Below, piece by piece: positions 1 to 13,595 of a DNA stretch of 64,000 bases. The number at the start of each line of letters is the position of its first letter. Position 1 is the stretch's first letter. Under the pieces are notes generated by a model that was not told the origin of the DNA, ran no database searches, and saw only the letters and a program-made list of their open reading frames with translations. Source of the stretch: Nocardioides litoris (lineage in GTDB: Bacteria; Actinomycetota; Actinomycetes; Propionibacteriales; Nocardioidaceae); assembly GCF_006346315.1 (NCBI RefSeq), contig NZ_VDMR01000008.1, forward strand, positions 124,001-188,000. Reading direction: 5' to 3'. The position numbers were made by a program, and so were the translations under genes.

Positions 1-1
1 G

Positions 2-652
2 GTCGCGATGTACGACTCCGCGTACGCCGCGCTGTACTACCCCTGGATCAAGGTCGAGAACCCGATCGGCACCAACGGCGACAGCGAGATCCTGATGCCG
101 CCGTCCGGCCACATCGCCGGCGTGTGGGCCCGCACCGACGACACCCGCGGCGTGTGGAAGGCCCCGGCCAACGACACCATGCGCGGCGTCCTCGACATCG
201 AGCGCGCGGTCACCCAGAACGAGCAGTCCCTGCTCAACCCGATCGGCATCAACTGCATCCGCCCGTTCGGCACCCGCGGCATCCGCATCTGGGGTGCGCG
301 CACCCTGGCCTCGGACACCGACTGGAGCTACATCAACGTCCGTCGTCTGTTCAACATGGTCGAGTCGACCATCCTCGAGGGCACCCAGTACGCCGTCTTC
401 GAGCCCAACGACATGGCGCTGTGGGAGGGCGTGAACCGGACCGTCAGCGGCTTCCTGCGCGGCCTGTGGACCGCCGGCGCGCTGTCCGGCCTGTCGGCCG
501 ACGAGGCGTTCTACGTCAAGTGCGACGCCGAGACCAACCCGCCGGAGTCGGTCGACGCGGGCATGCTCGTCGTCGAGGTCGGCATCGCGCCGGTCAAGCC
601 CGCCGAGTTCGTCGTGTTCCGCATCAGCCAGAAGAAGCAGGTCGCCGGCTGA
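2..652 (+). CDS. Contractile tail sheath protein, C-terminal part (eCIS)
   Basis: The open frame enters from the left window edge, so the true start lies upstream; 216 residues are visible. The text matches the C-terminal domain of T4/P2-like tail sheath proteins: a conserved stretch around GTRGIRIWGARTL, then YINVRRLFNMVESTI, and a final beta-strand ending in FVVFRISQKK. In contractile injection systems this protein polymerises around the inner tube and contracts to drive it through a target membrane. It is the first of a run of tail genes on the plus strand, and the tube gene follows after 56 bases. The family assignment is firm; whether one or several sheath genes exist cannot be seen. Confidence 0.93.
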   Translation, partial: VAMYDSAYAALYYPWIKVENPIGTNGDSEILMPPSGHIAGVWARTDDTRGVWKAPANDTMRGVLDIERAVTQNEQSLLNPIGINCIRPFGTRGIRIWGARTLASDTDWSYINVRRLFNMVESTILEGTQYAVFEPNDMALWEGVNRTVSGFLRGLWTAGALSGLSADEAFYVKCDAETNPPESVDAGMLVVEVGIAPVKPAEFVVFRISQKKQVAG

Positions 653-708: not shown

Positions 709-1188
709 ATGCCCAACGAGGCCCTCATCTCGACCGACCCGATCGTCGCCCAGAACTTCTACCTGGAGATCGCCGGCGAGAACATCATCCTGACCGGCGT
801 GTCCGGTCTCGACGTCGAGGCCGACGTCGTCTCCATCCAGCAGGTCGGCAAGACCGGCCGCTCGGAGATGGTCAAGACCCGCGGCAACATCAACAAGGCC
901 GCCGACATCACGATCACCCGGATGGCCCCCATGGACGCCATGTCGGACCCGATCTGGAAGTGGTTCAAGGACATCCGCGACAAGGGCATGGGCGGCACCG
1001 CCCGCACCGCCACCCGCAAGGACGGCTCCATCGTCCTGTACGACGGCGCCTACGCCGAGGTCGGCCGCTTCAACTTCTCCAAGGGCTGGCCCAGCAAGAT
1101 CGCGACCGACGCGGTCAGCACCGACTCCAACGAGGCCGTGAAGGAGACCATCACCCTGGTCATCGAGCGCCTCGACAGGATCAAGTGA
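709..1188 (+). CDS. eCIS inner tube protein 1 (T4 gp19-like)
   Basis: This 159-residue protein has the size and pattern of the gp19/Afp1-type tail tube family: an N-terminal NFYLEIAGE strand, a central VSIQQVGKTGRSEMVKTRG segment, then DITITRMAP and a final ETITLVIERLDRIK. Tube subunits stack as hexamers inside the sheath and form the conduit that is pushed out on contraction. The ATG is preceded by AGGAAG about 13 bases upstream, a loose ribosome site. It overlaps the next gene by four bases (GTGA), so translational coupling is likely. A second, different tube gene lies at 1866-2366, as is usual in eCIS clusters. Confidence 0.92.
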   Translation: MPNEALISTDPIVAQNFYLEIAGENIILTGVSGLDVEADVVSIQQVGKTGRSEMVKTRGNINKAADITITRMAPMDAMSDPIWKWFKDIRDKGMGGTARTATRKDGSIVLYDGAYAEVGRFNFSKGWPSKIATDAVSTDSNEAVKETITLVIERLDRIK

Positions 1189-1700
1189 GCAGTCTCCGCA
1201 CCTCGTACGAGTTCACGTTGCCGCGCGGCTACGTGGACGACGACGGCGGCCTCCACCGCAAGGGCACCATGCGGCTCGCAACGGCGCGGGACGAGCTCGC
1301 GCCGTTGCGGGACCCCACGGTGCAGGGCCCCGACGACCCCCGGTTGACCATCCTCGTCCTGACGAGGGTGGTCACCGGTCTCGGCACGCTCGACCAGGTC
1401 AACTCCCACGTCATCGAGGGCCTCTTCGCCGTCGACCTCGCGTTCCTGCAGGACTTCTACGGGGTCATCAACTTCGGCAACCAGGAGGAGTTCGAGGCCC
1501 TCATCGCCGCCCAGGAGGCCACCACGCTGGTGGGCTCCCCGGCGGCCCGGCCCGCGGCGCCCAGCGCGCCCGAGCCGGGGGCCGAGGACGGTGCGCCCGA
1601 CCAGGGCGGGGACGCCGACGACGCCGGCGACACGGTCGACGACGGTCCCGGCTCCTCGCGGCCGGGCGTGACCGGGCGGGTCTCCTACGGCGCCGGCTGA
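1185..1700 (+). CDS. Phage-tail assembly-like protein of the eCIS cluster
   Basis: The GTG at 1185 overlaps the tube stop codon, giving 171 residues. Residues 1 to about 110 form a folded domain starting SLRTSYEFTLPRGYVDDDG and containing LTILVLTRVVTGLG and DLAFLQDFYGVIN. This resembles the small tail-assembly proteins (Mu gp41-like) found between the two tube genes in eCIS clusters. The last 60 residues are an acidic, Ala/Asp/Gly-rich tail that looks disordered. In phages such proteins act as assembly chaperones for the tail tube; that role here is inference from family and position. The start was chosen for the GTGA overlap and because the domain begins at once. Confidence 0.72.
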   Translation: MSSLRTSYEFTLPRGYVDDDGGLHRKGTMRLATARDELAPLRDPTVQGPDDPRLTILVLTRVVTGLGTLDQVNSHVIEGLFAVDLAFLQDFYGVINFGNQEEFEALIAAQEATTLVGSPAARPAAPSAPEPGAEDGAPDQGGDADDAGDTVDDGPGSSRPGVTGRVSYGAG

Positions 1701-1705
1701 CGGCG

Positions 1706-1882
1706 ATGATGCGTTACCCGAGCGACGCCCTGTGGCAGGAGATCGCCTACCTGGCCTACCACCTGCACTGGCCGCTCGACGAGCTGCTCGACCTCGAGCA
1801 CATGGACCGGGTCCGGATGGTCCGGGCCGTGGTCTCCCTGAACGAACGAGCCTGGCAGGTGGTCCGTGAGCATGGCCAGTAA
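1706..1882 (+). CDS. Small DUF6760-type eCIS protein (58 aa)
   Basis: This short frame starts ATGATG and encodes 58 residues beginning MMRYPSDALWQEIAYLAYHL and continuing with HWPLDELLDLEHMDRVRMV and a final NERAWQVVREHGQ. The pattern (Leu-x-x-Glu-Ile-Ala, Tyr-His-x-His-Trp, Leu-Glu-His, Asn-Glu-Arg) is the signature I associate with DUF6760, a small protein found between the tube genes of eCIS loci. It sits where afp6 lies in the Afp locus. Its function is unknown. Its last 17 bases overlap the start of the second tube gene in another frame. At under 60 residues it is easily missed by automatic gene calling. Confidence 0.83.
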   Translation: MMRYPSDALWQEIAYLAYHLHWPLDELLDLEHMDRVRMVRAVVSLNERAWQVVREHGQ

Positions 1883-2366
1883 CAGCGGCGGCGCCGGGGG
1901 TGAGTCCGTCGAGCTCCTCGGCGGCGACGTCCCCACCGCCAACCGGTTCCTCTTCGAGCTCGACGGCGTCGAGATCGGCGTCTTCCGCGAGCTGCACGGG
2001 CTGCAGGTCACGGTGGCGGTGGAGGAGGTCCGCGAGGGCGGGCAGAACAGCTTCCACCACCGGGTGCCCGGCCGGATGAGCTGGCCCAACCTCGTCTTCA
2101 AGCGCGGTGTCACCTCCGGCAACGCCCTGTTCGACTGGCTCTCCAAGAGCTCGGGCGAGGGGTTCGCCACGTCCGGCAACAAGCTGGTCCGCTCCACGGG
2201 CGCCGTCACGGCGCTCGACCACCAGGGCACCCGGCTGCGAGCCTGGGAGCTGATCGACGTCTTCCCCGTACGGTGGAAGGGGCCGGACTTCTCCGTCGAC
2301 AGCCAGGACGCGCTGGAGGAGGAGCTCGAGATCGCCCACCACGGGTTCCGCGCGCAGGACAAGTGA
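1866..2366 (+). CDS. eCIS inner tube protein 2 (T4 gp19-like)
   Basis: This 166-residue protein is a second gp19-type tube protein. After a Gly/Ser-rich leader of about 20 residues it shows the family N-terminus NRFLFELDGVEIGVFRELHG, a central VPGRMSWPNLVFKRG segment, and ends in the strand LEEELEIAHHGF. In Afp and related systems this protein (Afp5 position) joins the tube to the baseplate or spike. The GTG at 1866 overlaps the upstream small gene; an in-frame ATG at 1872 is an alternative start. It is followed after 19 bases by the very long disordered-protein gene. Confidence 0.88.
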   Translation: MSMASNSGGAGGESVELLGGDVPTANRFLFELDGVEIGVFRELHGLQVTVAVEEVREGGQNSFHHRVPGRMSWPNLVFKRGVTSGNALFDWLSKSSGEGFATSGNKLVRSTGAVTALDHQGTRLRAWELIDVFPVRWKGPDFSVDSQDALEEELEIAHHGFRAQDK

Positions 2367-2385: not shown

Positions 2386-5300
2386 ATGAGCGAGACCAGC
2401 GGGCACGACCGCCCCGACCGTCCCGAGCGCCCCGAGCCGTGGCTCGGGGCGACGGTCGTGCGTCGGCTCCGCAAGCCCGGCCCGCCCCTGGGCCGACCCC
2501 TCCCGACGCGGGTGGGGTCGATCGCCTCCGCGGTCTCGCGCTTCGCGGCCTCGACGTCACGCCCGGTCGACATCCGCCGCGCCCTGGCCGGTCCCGAGCC
2601 GGCCGTGCGCCCGCCGCGGTGGTGGACCGGACCCGAGGAGGTCGACGAGGCGCCCGCCGCGGCCCCGACGTCGACGGCCCGCGCGGCCGCCCCGGCCCCG
2701 CTGCGCCGTGCGGCCGTCCCGTGGCTGGCGCCGTCGCGGCCCGTGTCCACCGACGCGCTGCCCGAGCGCAAGCTGCCCCGGGCCGCGCGGTCCGTCCCGC
2801 ACGAGGACACCTACACACCCGGCGGCATCCTCGGCGGCCTGACCGCCGAGGTCGTGCCCGTACGTCGCCACACCGAGGTGCAGGCCGCGGGCCCGATGCT
2901 CAACGCCACCGACCACGCCCGGCTCCGCGCCGCGCAGCGGGTCGCGCCGCTGCCGGTCGAGCCCGCCCCCGTCGTACGCCGCGCGGTGCCGTCGGCACCC
3001 GCCCCGGCACCCATCCCGGCACCCATCCCGGCACCCATCCCGGCACCCGCCGCGACACCCGCCCCGGCGTCCGCGTCGCCCGGCCCGTCGACGGCCGTGC
3101 CGCCTGCCCCGACCGCTTCCGCGCCCGCGCCGACGACCGGATCGGACGCCGGTCGTGCGGACGCCGTCCGCCGCACCCCGGACCCGGCCGGCCCGGCCTC
3201 GTCCGGCCCGACGCCCTCGAGCGCGTCGGGCAGCGCCGCCACGGCGCCTGGCCCGGCGATGCCCCGCAGCGGCCCCTCCGGCGGCTCCGACGACGGACCC
3301 GGGGGCCCCGGGGGCCCCGGCCCCTCGGGCGGCGGGGGTGGCGGGGGAGTCCGGGGCTCGTCCGGCCCCGGTCCCGCACCCCGCGGACCCGGCGCCCCGG
3401 GGGCACAGGCCCCGTCGTCCGCGGCGATGCCCACGGCTCCTCCGGCAGCCGACGGTCCCACGCCCGCCGGTCGGGCGACCGAGGTCCGCCGCACGCCCGC
3501 CGGCCCGGGGGGCGCCGCCGCTCCGAGCGCGGCCCCGGCTGCCCCGATCGCCAGGTCCGGCTCGTCGACGAGCACCGCCTCGGCCCCGAACGCGACCGCT
3601 CTCGCGTCCGCACCCGCCGCGGCCCCCGCCGGCGCACCCCCCGCGGCCGCCCCGCCCCGGGCCGGGTGGCGCCTGGGTGGCCAGCCGGTCGGGTCGCGGC
3701 TCGTGGCCCGGCGGCTCGCCCTCGGCGCCCGCCCGGGTGCGACCCCGCGCGCGGTGGCGCCGCTGCGCCGCGAGGCCGATGCCGCCCTGTCCGGCAGCGT
3801 CCGGGCCTCGGCCCCGGTCGCGGCGGCCGGGCCGTCCCTGATCGCCGCCTCGGCCCCGGCCTCGAGCCCCGCGCTCGCGGCGCGCGCCGGGGCCTCGCGG
3901 CGCGACGCCTGGTCGGCGTCCAGCGTCGTGATGCGCCAGGCCGGCCGGACCGCGGGCCTGCCGCTGACCCGCACGCCGGTGACCACGACGACCACCCCGA
4001 CGGCCACCACGACGGCCACCCCGGCGGCCGCCACGCCCGCCCCCGTCGCGCGCACCTCGGCGTCCACCACGCCCACGACACCCACGACCCCGGTCGCGCC
4101 GGTGGCCCGCACGGCCGCTGCGAGTGCCGCTCCCGCCGGGTCCGGAGGCGTCGCCGCCCCGGTCCGGACCGCGCCGAGCGGGGCGACCCCCACCCCGACG
4201 TCTCCGTCGTCGACGCCGGGCGTGGGCGGGTCCGCCCGCCCGGCGGCGTCCGGATCGGCGACCCCGCTGGCCCCCGAGCTCCGCGGCACCGACGCCGCGC
4301 CCGGGGCGGCCGTCGGCACCACCTCGACCCGGCCCGCACCCGGAGCCGTGCCCGAGGCTGCCGCGACCCCACTGCGCCGGGCCCTCGCCCCCGGGTCCGG
4401 CCCGGGTCCCGCGGCCAACCCGTCGGCTGCGCCGTCCACCCCGCACCTTCCGTCCAGTGCGGCTCGGGGCGGCGTCGCCGCCCGGCCCGGGGCCGACCTG
4501 GCCCCCGCTGCGCCGCGCCGGCTGCGCCGCGTCTTCGGCGGTGACGAGCAGCTCCGCCCGGCCACCGACCCCACCCGGCTCACGGTCGGCACCGGCGGCG
4601 TCACCGCCGTGCCGGCACGCCGCGCAGGCGACACCCCCTCCCGCGGGGCGGTGGCCGGTCCGGCCGCGCTGCGCCGCACCCCGGCCGCCTCGGCGCCGTC
4701 CGCCGCCTCGTCGGCAGCCCCGACGACCGCCCCCACCCCGCCCGCCCGGCCGGCTGAGGCATGGGCGCCCGGCACCCCGGCCGCCCCGGGCGCCCCGACA
4801 GCGAACCCAGACGCCCCGACCCCGGCCGCCCCGGGCGCGGCGAGCACGCCCCTGCGCCGCACGCCGGCCACGGGCCTCACCAGCCCCACCAGCCCCAGCA
4901 CGGGCGTCCCGGGCGCCCCGGCGTCGCTCCAGACCCCGGCGGCCGCCCTCCACACCACCGGCCCCGCGTCCGCGCCGCCGGTCGAGGTCGTGCCCGTCGT
5001 CGGCCCCCGGATCAGCCGCGTGGTCGGCCCGATCGGCGCGGTCTCCGCGGCCGCCCACCCGATGCCCGAGCTGTACTCGGTGCGTCGCGCACCGGTCCAC
5101 GGCCTCGAGTCCGGCCGGTCGCTCGCCTCGGCGCTCGCGGCGCCGGAGGAGATCCGTCCCGCCACCAGCGGCGCTGTCGCGTCCGTCGGGGCCGGGGTGC
5201 GCAGCGCATCCGCCGCCCGGTCCCGCACCGGCACGAGCAGCACGACCGGCGCGAGCGGCCCGAGCGGCCCGACCGGCACGACCGGCACGGCCGTCCCGGG

Positions 5301-6198
5301 CGCTGGCCGCCGCGGTGACACCTCGACCGTCCTCCGCTGGGCCCGCCCTGGCGGACCCGTCCGACGCCTCGCCACGACGACCCCGGCCGCGGTGCCCGCC
5401 CCGGGCGCTCCGGCCGCCGGGTCCACCCCGGGCCCCGCCCTCGGGGGCCTCGTCACCGCCGGCCCCGCGGGCTCGGCCGCCCGCACCGGGGCCCTGGTGC
5501 GCGCCGGCGGGACAGCAGGCGTCCCGGCCCTGCGCTCTGGTCCGGCCGGCGGCCCGCCCGTGCCCGACGTGGCCCGTCCCGGTGGCCGGTCGCCTGTGCC
5601 CGGCGGTCCCTCGGTCGCCGACCAGGTCGCGGCCGGCAGCCTGCGCCGGATGACGGTCGCCCCGCCCAGGGTCAGCATCGCCCCCCGCAGCACCGCGACC
5701 ACGGGAGCCGGCGGCGCCCCGCCCGTGCCCGCCGTCGCCCGCACCACCACGCCCGCGACCCCGGCCGCTGCGCCCGCGGGCGGGTCGCTCGTCGCGGCCA
5801 CCGCCCACCTCTTCGCCGACGCCGCGGGGTCCGCCCCGGCGTCCGGCGGTTCCACCTCGGCCGCGGCCGGCGTCGTACGCCGCCTGCTCGCCGAGCAGCC
5901 CGGCGGTCTGCCGGCACGTCACAGCGAGCTCCCGGGAGGGACCATGGACCCCGCAGCGCACTGGTCGGCCGACCCGCCGGGGAGTGGCGCCATCGTGCGC
6001 CGGCTGGCCACCGCACCCGACGATGTCCCCTCCACCTGGGAGCCCGCCACCGCCGCGGGCGGCGAGCCCGCCACGGGCGTGGTCCTGCCGGGCGAGGCCA
6101 TGGACGCCCTCGTCGACGCCGTCGTCGCGCGGATCGAGGAGCGGGTCATCGACGAGCTCGAGCGGCGCGGTCGGCGCCAGGACTGGGGAGTGATCTGA
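2386..6198 (+). CDS. Giant Pro/Ala/Thr-rich disordered eCIS protein with repeated R-R motifs (1270 aa)
   Basis: I do not recognise a named family. Nearly the whole protein is low-complexity Ala, Pro, Thr, Ser, Gly and Arg and is probably disordered. A short motif, hydrophobic residue followed by Arg-Arg, recurs about twenty times from end to end, for example VVRRLRKPG near the start, several LRRTP or VRRTP copies, and VVRRLLAEQ and IVRRLATAP near the end. A 12-base tandem repeat gives PIPA units at 3004-3051. The last 35 residues differ: they form a probable amphipathic helix, AMDALVDAVVARIEERVIDE followed by LERRGRR. The gene lies between tube 2 and the LysM baseplate gene, with one base before the next start, so it is co-transcribed with the eCIS genes. 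It could be a scaffold, tether or unusual tape-measure; none is proven. Confidence 0.75.
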   Translation: MSETSGHDRPDRPERPEPWLGATVVRRLRKPGPPLGRPLPTRVGSIASAVSRFAASTSRPVDIRRALAGPEPAVRPPRWWTGPEEVDEAPAAAPTSTARAAAPAPLRRAAVPWLAPSRPVSTDALPERKLPRAARSVPHEDTYTPGGILGGLTAEVVPVRRHTEVQAAGPMLNATDHARLRAAQRVAPLPVEPAPVVRRAVPSAPAPAPIPAPIPAPIPAPAATPAPASASPGPSTAVPPAPTASAPAPTTGSDAGRADAVRRTPDPAGPASSGPTPSSASGSAATAPGPAMPRSGPSGGSDDGPGGPGGPGPSGGGGGGGVRGSSGPGPAPRGPGAPGAQAPSSAAMPTAPPAADGPTPAGRATEVRRTPAGPGGAAAPSAAPAAPIARSGSSTSTASAPNATALASAPAAAPAGAPPAAAPPRAGWRLGGQPVGSRLVARRLALGARPGATPRAVAPLRREADAALSGSVRASAPVAAAGPSLIAASAPASSPALAARAGASRRDAWSASSVVMRQAGRTAGLPLTRTPVTTTTTPTATTTATPAAATPAPVARTSASTTPTTPTTPVAPVARTAAASAAPAGSGGVAAPVRTAPSGATPTPTSPSSTPGVGGSARPAASGSATPLAPELRGTDAAPGAAVGTTSTRPAPGAVPEAAATPLRRALAPGSGPGPAANPSAAPSTPHLPSSAARGGVAARPGADLAPAAPRRLRRVFGGDEQLRPATDPTRLTVGTGGVTAVPARRAGDTPSRGAVAGPAALRRTPAASAPSAASSAAPTTAPTPPARPAEAWAPGTPAAPGAPTANPDAPTPAAPGAASTPLRRTPATGLTSPTSPSTGVPGAPASLQTPAAALHTTGPASAPPVEVVPVVGPRISRVVGPIGAVSAAAHPMPELYSVRRAPVHGLESGRSLASALAAPEEIRPATSGAVASVGAGVRSASAARSRTGTSSTTGASGPSGPTGTTGTAVPGAGRRGDTSTVLRWARPGGPVRRLATTTPAAVPAPGAPAAGSTPGPALGGLVTAGPAGSAARTGALVRAGGTAGVPALRSGPAGGPPVPDVARPGGRSPVPGGPSVADQVAAGSLRRMTVAPPRVSIAPRSTATTGAGGAPPVPAVARTTTPATPAAAPAGGSLVAATAHLFADAAGSAPASGGSTSAAAGVVRRLLAEQPGGLPARHSELPGGTMDPAAHWSADPPGSGAIVRRLATAPDDVPSTWEPATAAGGEPATGVVLPGEAMDALVDAVVARIEERVIDELERRGRRQDWGVI
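3004..3051 (+). repeat. 12-base tandem repeat inside the disordered eCIS gene
   Basis: The unit CCGGCACCCATC occurs three times perfectly (3004-3039), followed by one altered copy to 3051. It keeps the reading frame and adds Pro-Ile-Pro-Ala units. Such in-frame repeats can change copy number by slippage, so length variation between strains is likely (inference). Confidence 0.85.
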
Positions 6199-6199
6199 G

Positions 6200-6856
6200 A
6201 TGGCGGAGCTGGAGAAGGCGTTCCTCGAGATCGAGGACGGGGCGCGGGTGCCGTGCCTCTACAACCCCGAGACGCTGAGCGTCGGGCGCAGCAACAACTG
6301 GGTGTCCAACCCGATGCCTGGCAAGGGCGTCTCGCAGCTGCGGTACGCCGGCGCGAGCTCGGGCTGGATGCGGCTCGACCTGTTCTTCGACACCACCTCC
6401 GACGGCACGGCCGTGACGACCCACACCGGCAAGATCCTGGCCCTGATGGACGTCGACCCCGACCTGCCCGGCAGCGACGAGGCCAGCAACAACGTCCGGC
6501 CGCCGACGGTCACCTTCCACTGGGGCGACCTGCACTCGTTCAAGGCGGTCGTGCAGGACCTGCGGCTCACCTTCACCTACTTCTCCTCCAGCGGGGTGCC
6601 GCTGCGCGCCCGGATGGCGCTGGAGCTGCGCCAGTACGAGGAGTCCCACGCCTTCGGTCCCCAGAACCCGACCTCCGGCACGCCCAAGCCGCACCGCACC
6701 CACCGGGTCCTGCCCGGCGAGACCCTCGACCGCATCAGCGCGCGCTACTACGGCGACAGCACGCGGTGGCGGATGCTGGCCGACGCCAACGGCCTGGAGG
6801 ACCCGCTCGCGGTCCGCCCCGGCACGGTGATCGACGTGCCGCGGCTGGAGGGCTGA
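6200..6856 (+). CDS. LysM-containing eCIS baseplate protein (Afp7-like)
   Basis: The 218-residue protein has an N-terminal tail domain of about 155 residues, beginning AELEKAFLEIEDGARVPCLY, and a C-terminal LysM module from about residue 163 (HRVLPGETLDRISARYYGD, then ADANGLEDP and PGTVIDVPRLEG). This two-part layout is that of Afp7/PVC7-type proteins and of gp53-like baseplate proteins, where the LysM-like fold packs against the spike rather than necessarily binding peptidoglycan. It starts one base after the stop of the long disordered protein, and its stop overlaps the VgrG-like gene by one base (TGATG), so tight coupling is expected. Confidence 0.9.
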   Translation: MAELEKAFLEIEDGARVPCLYNPETLSVGRSNNWVSNPMPGKGVSQLRYAGASSGWMRLDLFFDTTSDGTAVTTHTGKILALMDVDPDLPGSDEASNNVRPPTVTFHWGDLHSFKAVVQDLRLTFTYFSSSGVPLRARMALELRQYEESHAFGPQNPTSGTPKPHRTHRVLPGETLDRISARYYGDSTRWRMLADANGLEDPLAVRPGTVIDVPRLEG

Positions 6857-8616
6857 TGCCGCCACCGCTCGCCCCGGTCGTCGAGGTCAACGGCCGACCG
6901 CTGACGGCCCGCACCAACGACGCCCTGACCTCGTTGCGGATCGACCTCGGGCTCGGTCTGCCCGGCCGGGCCGTGCTGCGGTTCGTCGACACCGGCTACG
7001 AGATGGCGACCTCGGCCCTGTTCCCGATCGCCGCCGACGTCGAGGTCAGGGCCGGCGGCACGACGCTGCTGTCGGGCGAGGTGACCGCCATCGCGCTCGA
7101 GCAGGGTGACCGTCCCGCGCCCGAGCTCGTCGTCACCGTCGACGACCGGGCCTGCCGGCTCGGGCGCGGCACCCAGAACAAGGCCTTCACCAACCACAGC
7201 CACAGCGACCTCGTCTCCAAGATGGCCAGCGCCGCCGGGCTCAGCCTCGGTGGGCAGGACGCCAGCGTGCTGCCGAAGACCCAGCTGCCCTACGTCCTCC
7301 AGGCCGGCACCCACCTGGCCATGCTGCAGGAGATCTGCGCGCGGGCCGGGCTGGTCTGGTGGGTGCAGGGCAAGCAGCTCAAGATCGCCGCCGCCGGGGC
7401 GGGGTCCGGTACGGCGACGCTGCGCCTCGGCACCCCCGACCTGACCTCGTTCTCGGTCCGCGCGACGGCGACCGGTCCGGAGAAGGTCGAGGTCCGTGGG
7501 TGGAACCCCGACCAGCAGGCCGCCATCACCGGCACCTACGAGACCAAGCGGACCAAGGAGTCGGAGTTCGTGGCCTCCGCGGCCGGCCGCAAGGCCGCGA
7601 CCGGCGTGACGACTGCGGTCGCCCTCGCCGCCGACCGGCCCCTGGACGCCGCGGAGGCCGACACCCTCGCCAAGGCCCGGTTCGCCGAGGCGGCCTCGGC
7701 GTCCGTCGTGGCCACCGGCACCGGCGTGGTCGCACCCGCGCTCACCCTGACCACGGCTGTGACGGTCGACAACGCGGGTCCCGCGTCCGGCACCTACCGG
7801 CTCAGCCGGATCGAGCACACCTACAACCGTTCCGGGTTCACGACCCGCTTCACCGCCGGTCCGGTGCGTCCGTCCGGCCTGGTCGACCTGCTGGGCGGCT
7901 CGCGCCCGAGCGCCGGTCTCGACGTACCGGGCGTGCACCCCGCCGTCGTCAGCGACGTCAAGGACCCCGACAACAAGGGGCGGGTCAAGGTCACCTGGAA
8001 GGTCGTCGACGACCTGGTGGAGTCGGCGTGGGGCCGGATCGTCACCCTGGGGGCGGGCAAGTCGCGCGGCATGGTCCTGTTCCCCGAGGTCGGCGACGAG
8101 GTGCTGGTGGCCTTCGAGCACGGGGACTCACGCCGCCCGGTCGTCCTCGGCGGCCTCTACTCCACCAAGAACACGCTGCCGAGCGCCGACACCCTCGACC
8201 AGGACAAGGTGAAGTTCCGCCGCATCACCTCCCGGCTCGGGCACGTCGTCGAGCTGGCCGACGGGACCTCGCCCGCCGAGCAGCACGTCCTGATCACCCT
8301 GGAGGGCAAGAAGGACAAGATCCGGCTCGGCAAGGACCAGGTCGACGTCGTCTCCGACGGCACCCCCATCAAGCTGACCAACGGCCAGGCCTCGATCACC
8401 CTGGCCAAGAACGGCGACGTGACGATCGAGGGCAACAACATCGAGCTCAAGGCCAAGTCCGAGATCAAGCTGACGGCCACCAGCAAGGTGACCGTCAAGG
8501 GCAACGCCGGCGTCGCCGTCCAGGGCGCGCAGGTGCAGGTCAAGGCCGACGGCGTCGGCTCGGTCGAGGCCAGCGGGCCGCTGACCCTCAAGGGCGCGAC
8601 GGTGGCGATCAACTGA
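6856..8616 (+). CDS. VgrG-like spike/hub protein of the eCIS (Afp8-like)
   Basis: The ATG at 6856 shares its A with the preceding TGA. The 586-residue product has a gp27-like hub (residues 1 to about 340), then a gp5-type OB domain (VKDPDNKGRVKVTWKVVDD, GMVLFPEVGDEVLVAFEHGD, and RPVVLGGLYS, roughly 370-430), and a C-terminal needle-like beta-helix rich in short repeats (ITLAKNGDVTIEGNNIELKA and following). It forms the central spike under the tube. There is no added catalytic domain at the C-terminus, so this is not an evolved VgrG carrying an effector. No PAAR tip gene is visible next to it. The next gene overlaps the stop (TGATG). Confidence 0.93.
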   Translation: MPPPLAPVVEVNGRPLTARTNDALTSLRIDLGLGLPGRAVLRFVDTGYEMATSALFPIAADVEVRAGGTTLLSGEVTAIALEQGDRPAPELVVTVDDRACRLGRGTQNKAFTNHSHSDLVSKMASAAGLSLGGQDASVLPKTQLPYVLQAGTHLAMLQEICARAGLVWWVQGKQLKIAAAGAGSGTATLRLGTPDLTSFSVRATATGPEKVEVRGWNPDQQAAITGTYETKRTKESEFVASAAGRKAATGVTTAVALAADRPLDAAEADTLAKARFAEAASASVVATGTGVVAPALTLTTAVTVDNAGPASGTYRLSRIEHTYNRSGFTTRFTAGPVRPSGLVDLLGGSRPSAGLDVPGVHPAVVSDVKDPDNKGRVKVTWKVVDDLVESAWGRIVTLGAGKSRGMVLFPEVGDEVLVAFEHGDSRRPVVLGGLYSTKNTLPSADTLDQDKVKFRRITSRLGHVVELADGTSPAEQHVLITLEGKKDKIRLGKDQVDVVSDGTPIKLTNGQASITLAKNGDVTIEGNNIELKAKSEIKLTATSKVTVKGNAGVAVQGAQVQVKADGVGSVEASGPLTLKGATVAIN

Positions 8617-9041
8617 TGACCGAGACCTCCCTGACCAGCGACGACGGGTCCTTCGTCGGCCGCGGCCTCGGCTGGCCGCTCGGCGTCGACCAGACCGGCG
8701 CCCTCCGGCTCTCCGACGGCGTCCCCGAGCTCGACCGCTCGATCGAGCTGGTGCTGATGACGGCGCCGGGGGAGCGGCTCATGCGCCCGCAGTTCGGCTG
8801 CCGCATCTGGGACCTGCTCTTCGAGCCGGTGACGCCCAACCTGCTCGGCCTGATCAACGAGGCGGTCCGCTCCGCCCTGGCCCAGTGGGAGCCGCGCATC
8901 GTCGTCGACGAGGTCGTCAGCCGCCCCGACGACGACCAGTCGGCGCTGGTGCAGATCCACGTCGGCTACCGGGTCCGCGCCACCAACGACCGGCGCAACC
9001 TGGTCTACCCCTTCTACGTCATCCCGCACGACGCCGAGTAG
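8616..9041 (+). CDS. gp25-like baseplate wedge protein (Afp9-like)
   Basis: A 141-residue protein with the gp25/W family pattern: an N-terminal FVGRGLGWPLGVDQTGALRL segment, the conserved ELVLMTAPGERLMRPQFGCR stretch that carries the family's EPR-like core, then DLLFEPVTPN and ALAQWEPRIVVDEV. gp25-type proteins sit at the inner baseplate and nucleate sheath polymerisation. The ATG overlaps the VgrG-like stop codon by one base. A ten-base gap separates it from the baseplate J gene. Confidence 0.93.
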   Translation: MTETSLTSDDGSFVGRGLGWPLGVDQTGALRLSDGVPELDRSIELVLMTAPGERLMRPQFGCRIWDLLFEPVTPNLLGLINEAVRSALAQWEPRIVVDEVVSRPDDDQSALVQIHVGYRVRATNDRRNLVYPFYVIPHDAE

Positions 9042-9051
9042 GACGCGAGCC

Positions 9052-11007
9052 ATGCCCCTTCCCACCCCCGCCCTCGACGACCGGACGTTCCAGGACATCG
9101 TCGACGAGGCCAAGCGGATGATCCCGCGGTTCTGCCCCGAGTGGACCAACCACAACGTCTCCGACCCCGGCGTCGCGCTGATCGAGCTGTTCGCGTGGAT
9201 GAGCGAGATGGTCCTGTACCGGGTCAACCAGGTGCCGGAGCGGCTCTACACGCACTTCCTCAACATGGTCGGCATCCAGCCGTTCCCGCCGTCGGTCGCC
9301 TCGACCAACCTCACGTTCTGGCTCTCCGCGGTGCTCGAGGCCCCGGTCGTCGTGCCGTCGGGCACCGAGGTCATGACGGTCGCCGGCGCCAGCGCGGGCC
9401 GCGAGGACCCGGTCGTGTTCAGCACGGTCACCGACCTCGTCATCGCCCCGCCGGTCCTGGAGACGGCCAAGGTGACCACGGTGCTCGAGGGCCGCGTCGA
9501 GGACGTGTGGGACGACCTGCGGTTCAGCACCGAGGGGGCCCGCACCTTCGCCTCGTCCACGATGACCGCGGGCGACACCTTCTGCCTCGGGTTCGCCGAC
9601 TCCCTGGCCGGCATGGTGCTGCGCCTGTCGGTGACGGCCGAGGCCGAGGGCATCGGCGTCGACCCCCGCAACCCGCCCATCGCCTGGGAGGTCTGGAACG
9701 GCGAGGGCTGGATCGCCGCCGACGTCTACGAGGACACCACCGGCGGCCTCAACCGCGCCGGCGAGATCGTCCTGCTCGTGCCCGTCGAGCACCAGCCGCT
9801 CAGCATCGGCAACCGCACGGCCCACTGGCTGCGGGCCCGGCTGCTGCCCACCGCCAGCGGTCGGCCGACGTACCAGGCCTCGCCGCGGCTGCAGCGCGTC
9901 GAGGTCTCCGCGCTCGGCGGCACCGTGCCGGCCGAGCACGCCGAGACGGCCGAGGCCGAGCAGCTCGGCCGCAGCGAGGGCGCGCCGGCCCAGAAGTTCG
10001 CCGTCGCCCACGCCCCGGTGCTGCCGCGCCGCGAGGGCGAGACCGTGCGCGTCGTCGACGGCGAGCACGTGCACGAGTGGACCGAGGTCGCCGACTTCTC
10101 CGGCTCCGACCACCGCGACCGGCACTACGTGTGGGACAGCTCGACGGGCGAGGTCGTCTTCGGGCCGAGCGTGCGCTACCCCGACGGCTCGGTGCGCCAG
10201 CACGGCGCGATCCCGCGCGACGGCGCGTTCGTCGAGGTCACCGGCTACCGCCACGGCGGCGGCTCGCGCGGCAACGTCGGCGCCCGCACCCTGACCCTGC
10301 TGCGATCGACCGTCCCCTTCGTCAGCGGCGTGACCAACCTGCGCGCCGCGACCGGCGGCGTGGACGCCGAGACCGTCGCCGAGGCCAAGGTGCGCGGCCC
10401 GCTCGCGCTGCGCACCGGCCAGCGCGCGGTCACCGCGGGTGACTACGAGCGCCTCACGCTCGAGGCCTCGCCCCAGGTCGCCCGCGCCCGGTGCCGCTCG
10501 GCCCGACGCGGCAACGGCACCGTGCAGCTGCTCGTCGTGCCGCAGGTGCGCGGCGACGTCGGCGGCCACGGCATCGACGACTTCGCCATCTCCGACTCCC
10601 TCATGCGCACGATCTCCGACCACCTCGACCGCCACCGCGTCGTCGGCACGTCGGCGGAGGTGACCACGCCCTTCTACCAGGGCGTGTCCGTCGTCGCGCT
10701 CGTCCACGGCGCCCCCGGCCGCCCGCAGGGCCTGGTCAAGCAGCGGGCCGTCGACGCCCTCAACCGCTTCATCAACCCCCTCACCGGCGGGCCCGACAGC
10801 GCGGGCTGGCCCTTCGACGCCGATCTCAACGTCGCCGGCATCACCCAGCTGCTCGAGTCGGTCGAGGGCGTCGAGCGGGTCGAGGAGGCGCTGCTGTTCG
10901 AGTACGACCTGCGCACCGGTCGCCGCCTCGGCGCGGCCAAGGACGTCGTGCGCCTCGACCGCCAGTCGCTGTTCCTCTCCGCCGCCCACCAGGTGGTCGT
11001 GCGATGA
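9052..11007 (+). CDS. Baseplate J-like protein of the eCIS (Afp11-like)
   Basis: This 651-residue protein matches the putative baseplate assembly family (Afp11; J/gp6-like). The N-terminus LDDRTFQDIVDEAKRMIPRF with WTNHNVSDPGVALIELFAWM is diagnostic, followed by HFLNMVGIQPFPP. Middle domains contain WNGEGWIAADVYEDTTGG and HYVWDSSTGEVVFGPSVRYP, and the C-terminal third has the J-type core TGGVDAETVAEAKVRGPLAL and RAVTAGDYERL. These proteins form the wedge ring of the baseplate. The last four bases overlap the next gene (ATGA). Confidence 0.93.
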   Translation: MPLPTPALDDRTFQDIVDEAKRMIPRFCPEWTNHNVSDPGVALIELFAWMSEMVLYRVNQVPERLYTHFLNMVGIQPFPPSVASTNLTFWLSAVLEAPVVVPSGTEVMTVAGASAGREDPVVFSTVTDLVIAPPVLETAKVTTVLEGRVEDVWDDLRFSTEGARTFASSTMTAGDTFCLGFADSLAGMVLRLSVTAEAEGIGVDPRNPPIAWEVWNGEGWIAADVYEDTTGGLNRAGEIVLLVPVEHQPLSIGNRTAHWLRARLLPTASGRPTYQASPRLQRVEVSALGGTVPAEHAETAEAEQLGRSEGAPAQKFAVAHAPVLPRREGETVRVVDGEHVHEWTEVADFSGSDHRDRHYVWDSSTGEVVFGPSVRYPDGSVRQHGAIPRDGAFVEVTGYRHGGGSRGNVGARTLTLLRSTVPFVSGVTNLRAATGGVDAETVAEAKVRGPLALRTGQRAVTAGDYERLTLEASPQVARARCRSARRGNGTVQLLVVPQVRGDVGGHGIDDFAISDSLMRTISDHLDRHRVVGTSAEVTTPFYQGVSVVALVHGAPGRPQGLVKQRAVDALNRFINPLTGGPDSAGWPFDADLNVAGITQLLESVEGVERVEEALLFEYDLRTGRRLGAAKDVVRLDRQSLFLSAAHQVVVR

Positions 11008-11588
11008 GCTCGCTGGTCCGCTCCGCGCGCCTGCCGGCCCGGCCGGCACGGCGCGCGCGCCCCGACGACTGGATGCTGCGCCAGCTGCCGGTGCAGATGC
11101 TGGCCCACGACTTCTTCGTCCGCTTCGTCTCGATCTTCCAGGAGCTCGGGTCCTCGCTGCTCGACGACGCCGACAACGTCGACCACGCCGTCGACCTCAC
11201 CGTCGCGCCGGAGAGCTCGATCGCCTGGCTGGGCTCGTGGATCGGGGTGGAGAAGCTCGACAACTCCATGCCGGCCGAGCTGCGACGCCGTATCGTGGCG
11301 ACCGCTGCGCAGACGCTGGCCACACGCGGCACGGTCCAGGGGCTCCGCGCCTACCTCGAGCTCCTCAGCGGCGGTGCCGCCGAGGTCGAGGACGGCGGCG
11401 GGGTGTGGCGGGCGGGGGAGGTCCCGGCCGACACGGCCTGGGTCCGGATGCACGTGGCCTCGACGGGTGCGGTGCCGGAGGACGCGTTCGTGGACATGGT
11501 CCGCGACGAGGTCCCGGCCCACGTCCGGGCGCAGCTGTGGGTCGCCGACCGCGTGGTCTGGGACTCCGAGCACGACGACGAGTGGTGA
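11004..11588 (+). CDS. Phage tail protein I-like baseplate protein (Afp12-like)
   Basis: The ATG at 11004 overlaps the J-gene stop codon, giving 194 residues. The pattern WMLRQLPVQMLAHDFFVRFV, then IAWLGSWIGVEKLDNSMPAE and RRRIVATAAQTLATRGTVQG with YLELLSGG, is that of the P2 gpI/Afp12 family, partner of J in the baseplate wedge. The C-terminal half (VRMHVASTGAVPEDAFVDMV) is more variable. In many loci a fibre gene follows; here the next gene is a zinc-ribbon protein instead. Confidence 0.88.
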   Translation: MSSLVRSARLPARPARRARPDDWMLRQLPVQMLAHDFFVRFVSIFQELGSSLLDDADNVDHAVDLTVAPESSIAWLGSWIGVEKLDNSMPAELRRRIVATAAQTLATRGTVQGLRAYLELLSGGAAEVEDGGGVWRAGEVPADTAWVRMHVASTGAVPEDAFVDMVRDEVPAHVRAQLWVADRVVWDSEHDDEW

Positions 11589-12266: not shown

Positions 12267-13595
12267 CTAGGGGACGTCGGGGGAGGCGCCGGAGCTCGGC
12301 GTGACGTGCGGAGGCTCGACGGGCGACTCCGGCGCGGGGGTCGGCTCGTCGACGGGAGGCTCCTCGGCCGCGAGGCACCGGTCCCAGACGTCGTCGGCGT
12401 CGAGCGGGTCGTCGACGTGCCCGGCGGCGGTGCAGGCCAGCTCGCCATCGGTCGGGCCGGACGGGCCTGTCGGTCCGGACGGGCCCGTCGGGTCGGTCGG
12501 GTCGGGTCCGGTCGGGTCCGTGGGATCGGTCGGGTGCGTGGGCGCCGTCGGGCCCGTCGGGCCGGGGCCGGGGGTCCAGGGGGTGCTCGGTCCGGTGGTC
12601 ACGGGGGAGCCGGGGACGACCGGTCCCAGGAGCGGCGGGGTGCCGCTGCCCTGGGGGGTCTCGACGACGAAGGACACCGTGCCGGCGCCGGCGACCAGGC
12701 CCGTCCCGCCGGCACCGGGGCCGCCGACCGGGACGCCGGGCACCGGTGGACCGACGGGCGGGGGCGGCGCGGCCTGGACGACCGTGGCGGTGCCGGCCGG
12801 GTCGCCCGTGCCGGCAGCGCCGTCGCCCGCGGCGAGGTAGTCGGCCATCACGGCCAGCACCTGGTCGACGTAGGCCTGGCTGTGGTTGTAGCGGAAGACC
12901 GCGGCCCGCAGGCCGGCGTCGGTGCCGAGGTCGTCGGAGCCGGAGCAGAGGTAGACCGCGGCGGCGAGGGCCGCGTCGTCGATGTCCTGGGGGTCGCGGG
13001 CGCCGTCGCCGTCGGCGTCGACCCCGACGGCCGCCCACGTGGACGGGATGAACTGCATCGGGCCGACGGCCCGGTCCCACGCGGTGTCGCCGTCGAGGTC
13101 GCCGGCGTCGGTGTCGCGGATCGCCGCCGTGCCGCTGGACCCGTCGAGGCGGATGCCCAGGATGGACGGCGTCGCCCGTCCGTCGGCGTCGAGCGCACCC
13201 CCGGCGTACCGGCCGTGGTCGGACTCGATGCGGCCCAGCGCGGCCACGGCCTGCCAGGCCAGGTGGCAGCCGGGGTCGGCTGCGTTGATGACGGCCTCGG
13301 CCCGCTGGTAGGCGGCCAGGGCGCGGGCGGGGACGTCGACGGTCGTGGTCGCCCCCGTGACCACCGGGAGGACGCCGTCGGTCGCGACGACGCCGCCCGG
13401 CGACGGGGTGACGCTGACGGGGGCGTCGAAGCCCTCGGCCGGGACGGTCAGGGTGGCGGCGATGCCGGGGGCGGGGGTGGCCGGAGCGGCCGTGGCGGTG
13501 GTGGCCGGGGCACCGGCGGCGTGCACGCACCAGGCGGTCGAGAGGAGCGCGAGCGGGACGCCGGTCAGGCCACGTCGCAGCGCGCTCGACAACAC
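12267..13595 (-). CDS. Secreted lytic transglycosylase with Asp-rich loops and a Pro/Thr-rich tail
   Basis: The GTG at 13595 gives 442 residues with a signal peptide (RRGLTGVPLALLSTAWCVHA). An in-frame TTG at 13592 fits the upstream GGGAG at 13599-13603 slightly better. Residues about 85-270 are an SLT_2/MltB-like lytic transglycosylase domain: AALGRIESDHGRYAGG holds the catalytic Glu, followed by GPMQFIPSTWAAVGVDADGD and AALAAAVYLC. Two Asp-rich loops (DTDAGDLDGD and DADGDGARDPQDID) look like calcium sites. The C-terminal third is Pro/Gly/Thr-rich with repeated GPT and DPT triplets. These enzymes cleave peptidoglycan glycan strands outside the membrane. The gene is convergent with the eCIS cluster, 21 bases away. 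Confidence 0.87.
   Translation of the reverse strand: MLSSALRRGLTGVPLALLSTAWCVHAAGAPATTATAAPATPAPGIAATLTVPAEGFDAPVSVTPSPGGVVATDGVLPVVTGATTTVDVPARALAAYQRAEAVINAADPGCHLAWQAVAALGRIESDHGRYAGGALDADGRATPSILGIRLDGSSGTAAIRDTDAGDLDGDTAWDRAVGPMQFIPSTWAAVGVDADGDGARDPQDIDDAALAAAVYLCSGSDDLGTDAGLRAAVFRYNHSQAYVDQVLAVMADYLAAGDGAAGTGDPAGTATVVQAAPPPPVGPPVPGVPVGGPGAGGTGLVAGAGTVSFVVETPQGSGTPPLLGPVVPGSPVTTGPSTPWTPGPGPTGPTAPTHPTDPTDPTGPDPTDPTGPSGPTGPSGPTDGELACTAAGHVDDPLDADDVWDRCLAAEEPPVDEPTPAPESPVEPPHVTPSSGASPDVP

What the first reader, a model, noticed from the sequence alone, without database searches (positions are those of the whole stretch)
2386..6198. A 1270-residue disordered eCIS protein built around about twenty Arg-Arg motifs
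The sequence shows a very long Pro/Ala/Thr/Arg-rich protein between the second tube gene and the LysM baseplate gene. A hydrophobic-Arg-Arg motif recurs from end to end, often as LRRTP or VRRTP, and the last 35 residues form a probable helix. Known eCIS maps have no such large disordered protein at this point in the best-studied systems. Evenly spread short motifs on a flexible chain would fit a scaffold that binds many identical subunits, a tether, or an unusual length ruler. The function is inference.
Basis: partly seen in the sequence, partly recalled or inferred. Interest (0 to 1): 0.72.

Follow-up and report, generated by a model that had tools for sequence, protein, structure and literature searches.

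The report
Disordered tape-measure-like protein in injection systems
A giant floppy protein sits where phage tails encode their length ruler, and long relatives of it occur in bacterial injection machines whose published gene maps lack a ruler, so it may be a missing piece that sets their length.

Summary
Window 2386-6198 (+) is one intact 1270-residue low-complexity frame with 24 RR and 17 [LVI]RR (1.3 expected) and a confident C-terminal helix. It lies in a Nocardioides contractile injection locus without a recognised tape-measure gene. It is not unique: 53 complete relatives of 529-1586 residues occupy the same slot in other Actinobacteria. Nineteen loci that seemed to lack it carry a relative one gene upstream, between DUF6760 and tube 2. 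So does a Streptomyces genome whose tube equals the solved S. coelicolor tube, a system reported as uniform in length yet without a tape-measure gene. A chaperone-like gene precedes it, as P2's E/E' precede tape-measure gene T. Nine of 53 relatives carry the eCIS_core domain inside the chain. Best reading: a disordered, hub-anchored tube-lumen protein working like a tape measure with a plug-like foot. Position, partners, conserved ends and family are shown; lumen location, length setting and cargo docking are inferred. Sequence makes it a member of neither the short Cis6/Alg6 plug family nor a known tape-measure family.

The parts
2386..6198 (+). Giant disordered slot protein, 1270 aa (P0001)
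   Evidence: relatives
2443..2625 (+). Conserved N-terminal module, residues 20-80 (LG..VRR.R.PGP..GR..P..IGS.AS...RFA...SRPV.IRRAL.GP....RPPRWW)
   Evidence: AF2 short low-confidence helices
2722..2931 (+). Second conserved block, residues 113-182 (WL...LP...LPRAAR...E..TPGG....VRR..EV.A.GPML)
3658..3714 (+). Short conserved island, residues 425-443, within the variable middle
5662..5685 (+). Short conserved island PPRVSIAP, residues 1093-1100
5785..5826 (+). Conserved island and weakly predicted helix around SLV.ATAHLFADA, residues 1134-1147
6091..6180 (+). C-terminal amphipathic helix, residues 1236-1265 (..DALVDAVVARIEERVIDELERRG), proposed foot in the hub/spike cavity
   Evidence: profile links
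1185..1700 (+). Tail assembly chaperone-like gene (PHROG 508, E 5.8e-4); found in 43 of 43 tested loci that hold both it and DUF6760 together with a helix-tailed slot protein
1706..1882 (+). DUF6760 gene, partner of the chaperone gene
709..1188 (+). Tube protein 1 (Phage_T4_gp19)
1866..2366 (+). Tube protein 2 / tube initiator (Phage_T4_gp19)
1..652 (+). End of the sheath gene (starts upstream of the window, coordinate -898)
   Evidence: Phage_sheath_1 and sheath PHROGs
6200..6856 (+). CIS_tube plus LysM tube initiator (Cis7/Afp7-like)
6856..8616 (+). VgrG/gp27-gp5-like spike and hub (Phage_GPD, Phage_base_V)
8616..9041 (+). gp25-like sheath initiator
9052..11007 (+). Baseplate_J wedge
11073..11588 (+). 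Tail_P2_I wedge

Best explanation
The gene encodes the tape-measure-like protein of this injection-system lineage, in an unusual disordered form. Its C-terminal helix anchors it, probably as a small bundle, in the hub/spike cavity at the base of the inner tube, where the short Cis6/Alg6 plug sits in other systems. The roughly 1230-residue Arg-rich, Lys-poor chain then runs up the tube lumen, held during assembly by the tail assembly chaperone and the DUF6760 protein encoded just upstream, until the conserved N-terminal module meets the growing end or cap. Chain length would set the number of tube rings, and repeated hydrophobic-[Arg/Gln]-Arg motifs would dock the chain to the tube wall or to DUF4157 cargo. 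Shown: gene position, partner genes, conserved ends, non-random motifs, wide distribution, embedded eCIS_core domain in some members. Inferred: lumen location, oligomer, length setting, chaperoning, what the motifs bind.
For: Position: sheath - tube - chaperone - DUF6760 - (tube 2) - giant - LysM - hub in the window. Phage P2 reads sheath FI - tube FII - E/E' - T 'putative tail length determinator' - U - D (that E/E' is a chaperone is recalled). In 19 related loci plus 2 Streptomyces plasmids a disordered frame with the helix lies between DUF6760 and tube 2: 21 of 21 examined, 20 intact at 722-1488 aa (the C-terminal pattern used was drawn). Chaperone and DUF6760 were found in 15 of 16 loci with a giant (the other is a contig end), 9 of 10 with a medium-length helix-tailed protein, 19 of 23 that first looked empty, 0 of 4 with a short Afp6-like gene; of 3 unclear loci one has the chaperone only (its profiles were trained on 17 loci, among them 3 of the 10 and genomes shared with some of the 16). 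The 4 of 23 without chaperone and the 4 short-gene loci gave no helix-profile hit below E 0.07. No other tape-measure candidate among the called genes of the window's locus or between sheath and Tail_P2_I in 13 sampled loci (crude gene caller); four long unclassified genes elsewhere in them are CarboxypepD_reg or regulator genes. Helix profiles match across groups: P 4.8e-10, 2e-8, 1e-5 and 1.1e-6, 2.2e-7, 1.3e-17 for Streptomyces, against best column-shuffled controls of 0.019 and 0.0036 in 20 each. eCIS_core-like domain embedded in 9 of 53 complete members, confirmed by Pfam in 5 of 8 scanned; DUF4157 proteins are lumen cargo in AlgoCIS. All 54 chains of the window's clade are net positive; AlgoCIS and other lumens are reported negative. 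Size: 1378 aa beside a tube identical over 142 of 142 residues to the S. coelicolor tube; the particle has 60 tube layers, so about 0.17-0.18 nm per residue with AlgoCIS layer spacing. Lengths within close groups vary less than simulated drift (15 disjoint pairs, P about 0.03).
Against: No tape-measure family is hit (Pfam, NCBIfam, PHROGs). No membrane segment: maximum 19-residue hydropathy is 1.33 and falls at the C-terminal helix; no coiled-coil program was run, and the ends modelled show no long helix but the last. Deleting three effector genes in S. coelicolor left about 85 per cent of lumens looking empty, although the slot gene was presumably intact (PMC10066040), so a filled lumen cannot be the giant alone. 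The CIS-Sc model section lists nine modelled proteins and mentions no plug or lumen chain. Of 14 upstream-slot relatives measured, 13 are net negative, although the 8 intact Streptomyces ones are positive, so charge attraction to the lumen is not general. The length signal is weak (P 0.10 against variance 1). In haloarchaea a figure legend calls sheath lengths heterogeneous, although a 2322-codon helix-ending frame exists in a relative. The link to the short Cis6 family is not supported by sequence. One medium-group member is annotated at only 85 aa.
Confidence: 0.5

Rival explanations
1. Cargo scaffold: the chain is anchored at the hub and its repeated h[R/Q]R motifs each dock a DUF4157 cargo protein or another lumen protein; length is set by something else.
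For: Motif Arg residues are better conserved than other Arg in the middle (0.656 over 196 residues against 0.515 over 705; rest 0.429). Members with an embedded DUF4157 domain mostly lack the motif excess (7 of 9 against 4 of 45 without; Fisher P 6e-5, relatedness not corrected). Of 20 DUF4157-like ORFs found in the fetched loci (one of them L177's slot gene itself), the h[RQ]R total is 74 against 19.7 and 10 of 20 reach P 0.05 singly, mostly in upstream-slot loci.
Against: The motif being in both partners is not what a simple ligand-receptor pair predicts. The window's own DUF4157 protein shows no excess (1 against 0.8). Three of 20 intact frames and 11 of 54 of the window's clade lack the excess while keeping length and helix. 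No binding was tested.
Confidence: 0.2
2. Effector: the chain itself is the delivered cargo, ejected with the spike, like the tape-measure-related effector Tme of Streptomyces davawensis.
For: Tme is large, about 70 per cent disordered, carries DUF4157, is encoded just upstream of baseplate genes and co-purifies with spike and tube initiator (PMC11126660). 15 of 78 chains examined here carry the DUF4157-like domain (9 of them trained the profile).
Against: No enzymatic domain but eCIS_core in the 8 relatives scanned, and none in P0001. The conserved piece is the C-terminal helix, where Tme has its nuclease. DUF4157 is near the C-terminus here and in the N-terminal region in Tme and many toxins.
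Confidence: 0.15
3. Assembly nucleator only: the C-terminal helix is a plug needed to start the baseplate, and the long chain is dispensable low-complexity drift.
For: Alg6 deletion gave no particles (PMC8894135). The middle of the chain aligns poorly even within the genus.
Against: 53 of 54 lengths fall in 800-1600 aa, median 1100. Both ends and internal islands are conserved. Motif residues are better conserved than their surroundings.
Confidence: 0.1
4. Outside tether or coat linking the particle to membrane or partners.
For: Long flexible chain; the locus encodes proteins with apparent membrane segments (Zn-ribbon and CarboxypepD_reg proteins).
Against: No membrane segment in the chain; gene position and chaperone point to the tube; eCIS_core fusions point to cargo space.
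Confidence: 0.05

Closest known systems
Phage tape measure proteins, e.g. P2 gpT (AF063097)
   Same: Gene order sheath-tube-E/E'-long ORF-U-hub; chaperone of PHROG 508 upstream; longest ORF of the window's tail block; size fits about 0.17-0.18 nm per residue if the S. coelicolor-type member is the ruler.
   Different: No sequence match to tape-measure families; disordered by composition rather than helical; a second tube gene stands between chaperones and giant in the window's clade; length control untested.
Cis6/Alg6/Afp6 spike plug
   Same: Lies between tube 2 (Cis5) and LysM (Cis7) in the window; C-terminal helix; Anabaena Cis6 has a flexible loop reaching the lumen.
   Different: About twenty times longer than the 59-71 aa short proteins seen here; no DUF5908 match in 5 related genomes or records and none in P0001; comparison with short Afp6-like proteins gives P 0.006-0.008, no better than the best shuffled controls of other pairs; short-plug loci lack the chaperone pair.
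Tme, tape-measure-related effector of S. davawensis (PMC11126660)
   Same: Large, mostly disordered, upstream of baseplate genes; DUF4157 in Tme and in 9 of 53 complete relatives here.
   Different: Tme has DUF4157 in its N-terminal region, predicted TM helices, coiled coils and a C-terminal nuclease; P0001 has no such domain and ends in the helix.
Sle1 coiled-coil effectors of actinobacterial CIS (PMC13277306)
   Same: Tape-measure-like idea in the same class of bacteria.
   Different: [quoted passage not shown] coiled coil and TM hairpin; a different gene from the slot protein (passages).
Afp14 length regulator of AFP
   Same: Proposed role.
   Different: No Afp14-like gene recognised in the window's locus; Streptomyces clusters are reported to lack it.

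Membership tests
Tape measure protein | Encoded between tail tube/chaperone genes and the baseplate hub | tested here: met
Tape measure protein | Co-occurs with a tail assembly chaperone | tested here: met
Tape measure protein | Sequence similarity to known tape measure families | tested here: not met
Tape measure protein | Coiled-coil or transmembrane segments | tested here: not met
   no membrane segment; AF2 of the two ends shows one long helix only; no coiled-coil program was run and the middle was not modelled
Tape measure protein | Polypeptide length proportional to tube length | tested here: inconclusive
   one assembled comparison (1378 aa, 60 layers); weak length-compensation signal
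Tape measure protein | Located in tube lumen, bound to hub | not testable with these tools
   needs structure or cross-linking
Cis6/Alg6 spike plug (DUF5908) | Gene between Cis5 and Cis7 | tested here: met
   for the window's clade; upstream-slot relatives lie before Cis5
Cis6/Alg6 spike plug (DUF5908) | C-terminal alpha helix | tested here: met
Cis6/Alg6 spike plug (DUF5908) | Sequence match to Afp6/DUF5908 | tested here: not met
   (no Pfam hit); for five relatives; no solved Cis6 chain was reached
Cis6/Alg6 spike plug (DUF5908) | Trimer in spike cavity | not testable with these tools
   no complex prediction offered
DUF4157 (eCIS_core) effector | Contains PF13699 | tested here: not met
   absent in P0001; present in 9 of 53 complete relatives

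The most novel reading that the evidence does not exclude
A whole lineage of contractile injection systems, bacterial and archaeal, measures its tube with an intrinsically disordered, hub-anchored chain instead of a coiled-coil tape measure. It is encoded in the phage tape-measure position behind its chaperone, doubles as the spike plug and as the cargo rail through repeated hydrophobic-[Arg/Gln]-Arg motifs, and in some branches has fused with the eCIS core domain. It has been overlooked because it has no recognisable sequence.
Probability: 0.3. Interest if true: 0.88.

Novelty: new variant of a known kind. Interest (0 to 1): 0.77.

Why it matters
The 2025 CIS-Sc structure paper states that all analysed particles are identical in length and that the tape-measure gene is absent from the cluster (PMC12237407, section 6), and the haloarchaeal paper reports that plug and tape-measure homologues were not found (PMC11566945, passages). 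The family described here sits in the tape-measure position of clusters of that kind and names one gene to delete or shorten. If right, it explains length control without Afp14, shows that a tape measure need not be helical, and joins plug, ruler and DUF4157 cargo in one chain.

Tried and rejected
Composition artefact: rejected by shuffles and by conservation. Other-frame ORFs (for example 2557-5961 minus, 1134 aa) as the real gene: rejected, since the + frame has conserved ends in relatives. Direct identification by Pfam, NCBIfam and PHROGs: nothing for P0001; the C-terminal peptide gave only DUF5805 at E 0.047, far below its cut-off. PDB sequence search with the helix alignment, the Nostoc and Haloferax slot proteins and the short Afp6-like set gave no usable hit. 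DUF5908 (PF19265) in five related genomes or records: none.

My first conclusion that 23 loci lacked the gene was wrong: 19 of them carry a relative one place upstream. My reading of the Haloferax relative as 177 aa followed the record's annotation; the frame is open for 2322 codons. Tape measure in short-plug loci: three candidates gave one fibre-like protein and no tape measure, so an inverse relation 'short plug plus Afp14, or giant' was not shown. Alignment A3 held two mistyped peptides and A4 one row in a wrong frame; neither is used. The Fisher test was set up with one negative locus too few; one search repeats it with the right count (P 1.2e-8), but loci are related, so only counts are used as evidence. 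Charge attraction as a general rule: rejected, because 13 of 14 upstream-slot relatives are net negative.

Rows dropped: of the 80 loci (best 80 of 100), one false match (L161), 24 partial genes and 2 without the gene (L167, L178) were left out of the 53 complete members. L088 and L099 (frames disturbed) were left out of the same-genus alignment and L097 is cut by a contig end. L052 was left out of group B; 14 of the 19 upstream-slot loci entered the profile and charge counts. L054, L194 and L195 were set aside as unclear. One of ten matching Streptomyces genomes was not fetched.


Full report
WHAT IS THERE. The window starts inside the sheath gene of a contractile injection system (CIS) in a 4.66 Mb genome. 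A genome of the same genus has a contig of the same length as a named Nocardioides record, so the window is Nocardioides. Reading the contiguous upstream stretch, the locus is: two CarboxypepD_reg proteins with an apparent membrane segment, an AAA ATPase, a separate eCIS_core (DUF4157) protein, a Pvc16_N cap protein, a Septum_form protein, a DUF4280 protein, sheath, tube 1, a tail-assembly-chaperone-like gene, DUF6760, tube 2, the finding, LysM tube initiator, VgrG-like hub, gp25, Baseplate_J, Tail_P2_I and a Zn-ribbon protein with an apparent membrane segment. Among these called genes there is no recognisable Afp14-like tape measure and no fibre.

THE OBSERVATION. The 1270-residue frame is intact and its motif excess is far beyond chance. 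AlphaFold2 on the two ends, with 33 and 34 homologous rows, gives a confident helix at residues 1236-1265 and low confidence elsewhere; the middle was not modelled.

THE FAMILY. Twelve complete same-genus proteins (912-1389 aa) and one cut by a contig end share the ends and short internal islands. A scan of GTDB genomes with the neighbouring LysM protein gave the best 80 of 100 loci; 53 hold a complete gene in the same slot, 529-1586 aa (median 1096; 1100 with the window's protein), in records titled Nocardioides, Cellulomonas, Nakamurella, Virgisporangium, Acidimicrobiales and others. The C-terminal consensus is roughly [LV]D.VVERIE.RV..ELERRGR...GVF, and an N-terminal module ending in RPPRWW recurs in most of the listed N-termini. 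Other proteins with the same kind of C-terminus lie between tube 2 and LysM in a Nostoc plasmid (524 aa), in Paenibacillus (a 534-codon frame) and in Rhodococcus (annotated at 85 aa), and directly before LysM in Haloferax. Profile comparison of the giants' C-termini with nine such proteins gives P 4.8e-10. Haloferax is annotated at 177 aa but its frame is open for 2322 codons.

A CORRECTION THAT MADE THE CASE. Twenty-three loci first looked as if they lacked the gene. Nineteen of them have the chaperone and DUF6760 genes, and all nineteen, plus two named Streptomyces plasmids, hold a disordered frame with a matching C-terminal helix between DUF6760 and tube 2 (21 of 21; 20 intact, 722-1488 aa, one broken). 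These genomes are from the window's order, six of them from its own family. The C-terminal profile of 14 of them matches the others (P 2e-8 and 1e-5), while column-shuffled controls reach only 0.019 and 0.0036 as the best of 20 each. The remaining 4 of 23, and 4 loci with a short Afp6-like gene, lack the chaperone pair and gave no helix hit below E 0.07. Haloferax is the exception: a helix-tailed protein without a chaperone found in the fetched stretch. These loci are related to each other, so the counts are not independent events.

WHY A TAPE MEASURE. In phage P2 the order is sheath, tube, E/E', T ('putative tail length determinator'), U, D. The gene here matches PHROG 508 'tail assembly chaperone' in the window, in Streptomyces and in Nostoc (E 1e-4 to 6e-4). 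The giant therefore occupies the tape-measure position behind the chaperone. In S. coelicolor the published structure has 60 tube layers, 268 nm, all analysed particles identical in length, and the authors note that the tape-measure gene is absent (PMC12237407, passages and section 6); the earlier paper gives about 230 nm for a non-contractile mutant (PMC10066040). The tube of that structure (8bl4; depositions confirmed in the two papers) was sought in 392 genomes of one genus; ten matched at E 1e-60 and nine loci were fetched. One genome with 142 of 142 identical residues has a 1378-aa slot protein (nominal start) a few bases behind DUF6760. All 9 fetched loci have chaperone, DUF6760 and the C-terminal signature; 8 have an intact slot frame of 1101-1378 aa, and the second 100 per cent match has a disturbed frame. 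P2 gpT has 815 aa; its tail of about 135 nm is recalled, not looked up, and would give a similar value. As a weaker cross-species check, contracted sheaths are about 140 nm in S. coelicolor and 220 +/- 16 nm in Halogeometricum, a ratio of 1.57; the 1378-aa and 2322-codon frames stand at 1.69, but the archaeal frame is from another genus, its start is unknown and a legend calls those sheaths heterogeneous.

WHY THE LUMEN AND THE HUB. [quoted passage not shown] in AlgoCIS its C-terminal helix makes the trimer core, and in Anabaena a flexible loop of it reaches into the lumen (PMC8894135 section 11 and passages; PMC8894136 passages). The giant has a C-terminal helix and lies in the slot of that gene in the window's clade. 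Nine of 53 complete relatives (15 of 78 chains with partial ones and the window's protein; nine trained the profile) carry an eCIS_core-like domain, mostly near the C-terminus, above Pfam's cut-off in 5 of 8 scanned. DUF4157 proteins are lumen cargo in AlgoCIS. Against this, sequence does not connect the giant to short Afp6-like proteins, and three effector genes account for most visible lumen density in S. coelicolor.

THE MOTIF. A [LVIM]RR excess at P 0.01 or less is present in 43 of 54 members. Upstream-slot relatives mostly carry [LVIM]QR: 17 of 20 intact frames have an h[RQ]R excess, and the S. coelicolor-like protein has 25 against 1.0, 22 of them QR. Motif Arg are better conserved than other Arg (0.656 against 0.515). 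Of 20 DUF4157-like ORFs the total is 74 against 19.7, with 10 of 20 at P 0.05, but the window's own DUF4157 protein has none to speak of. Chains with the domain fused in mostly lack the excess (7 of 9 against 4 of 45). This fits docking to a common lumen partner, cargo or tube wall, or protease sites; the data do not decide.

LENGTH. Within close groups, insertions and deletions cancel more than in simulated drift: mean squared net/rms 0.61 over 35 non-independent pairs against 1.21-1.35 simulated; 15 disjoint pairs give P about 0.03 against the simulated variance and 0.10 against variance 1. This is suggestive only.

WHAT IS KNOWN. Ten text searches of an open-access library showed me no paper describing this protein; I saw their listings and read ten papers in passages or sections, and most subscription journals are not covered. 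Papers read as passages treat Cis6 and Cis14 as absent in some systems or lineages and discuss DUF4157 at the N-terminus of toxins, sometimes with linkers over 1000 residues (PMC8213781). The nearest described proteins are Tme (PMC11126660, passages and sections 6, 9, 12) and Sle1 (PMC13277306 passages).

VERDICT. A real, widespread family, not described in the papers I could search, in the tape-measure position of CIS loci that keep the chaperone pair. It works, most likely, like a tape measure with a plug-like foot; by sequence it is not filed as a member of either known family.

Noticed in passing
L162, L177, L180, L182, L183, L184, L186, L157, L158 (slot gene): An eCIS_core (DUF4157)-like domain with HExxH is embedded in the slot protein, mostly nearer the C-terminus, the reverse of its usual N-terminal place in toxins.
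   Followed up: partly
L193:1851-8819 (+): Haloferax larsenii plasmid: a 2322-codon S/T/A/R-rich open frame ends in the plug-like helix; only its last 177 aa are annotated. A haloarchaeal CIS paper reports the plug gene missing in a relative.
   Followed up: partly
L198:5228-9373 (+): S. clavuligerus plasmid: a 1381-aa slot ORF is not in the gene table shown (which is incomplete by design); two small ORFs are listed in its place.
   Followed up: partly
L212, L104, L088, L099: Slot gene (or the neighbouring LysM gene in L099) appears frame-disturbed; could be assembly error or decay.
   Followed up: no
L126 and L127: Cellulomonas sp. SG140 seems to hold two CIS loci whose slot proteins have identical C-termini; one lies at a contig end.
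   Followed up: no
L195:8002-12780: Deinococcus plasmid: a 1592-aa gene annotated as FHA-domain Ser/Thr kinase lies just upstream of the LysM-like gene.
   Followed up: no
L036-L046, L100-L103 (DUF4157 ORFs): Several short DUF4157 proteins carry repeated hydrophobic-[Gln/Arg]-Arg motifs, the same motif as the giants of those loci.
   Followed up: partly
window 12267-13526 (-): Proline/threonine-rich lytic transglycosylase-like protein (SLT_2) right after the CIS locus.
   Followed up: no
window -12478 to -5546 (L029): Two large CarboxypepD_reg repeat proteins and an AAA ATPase on the opposite strand at the locus edge; CarboxypepD_reg genes recur in other giant-bearing loci.
   Followed up: partly
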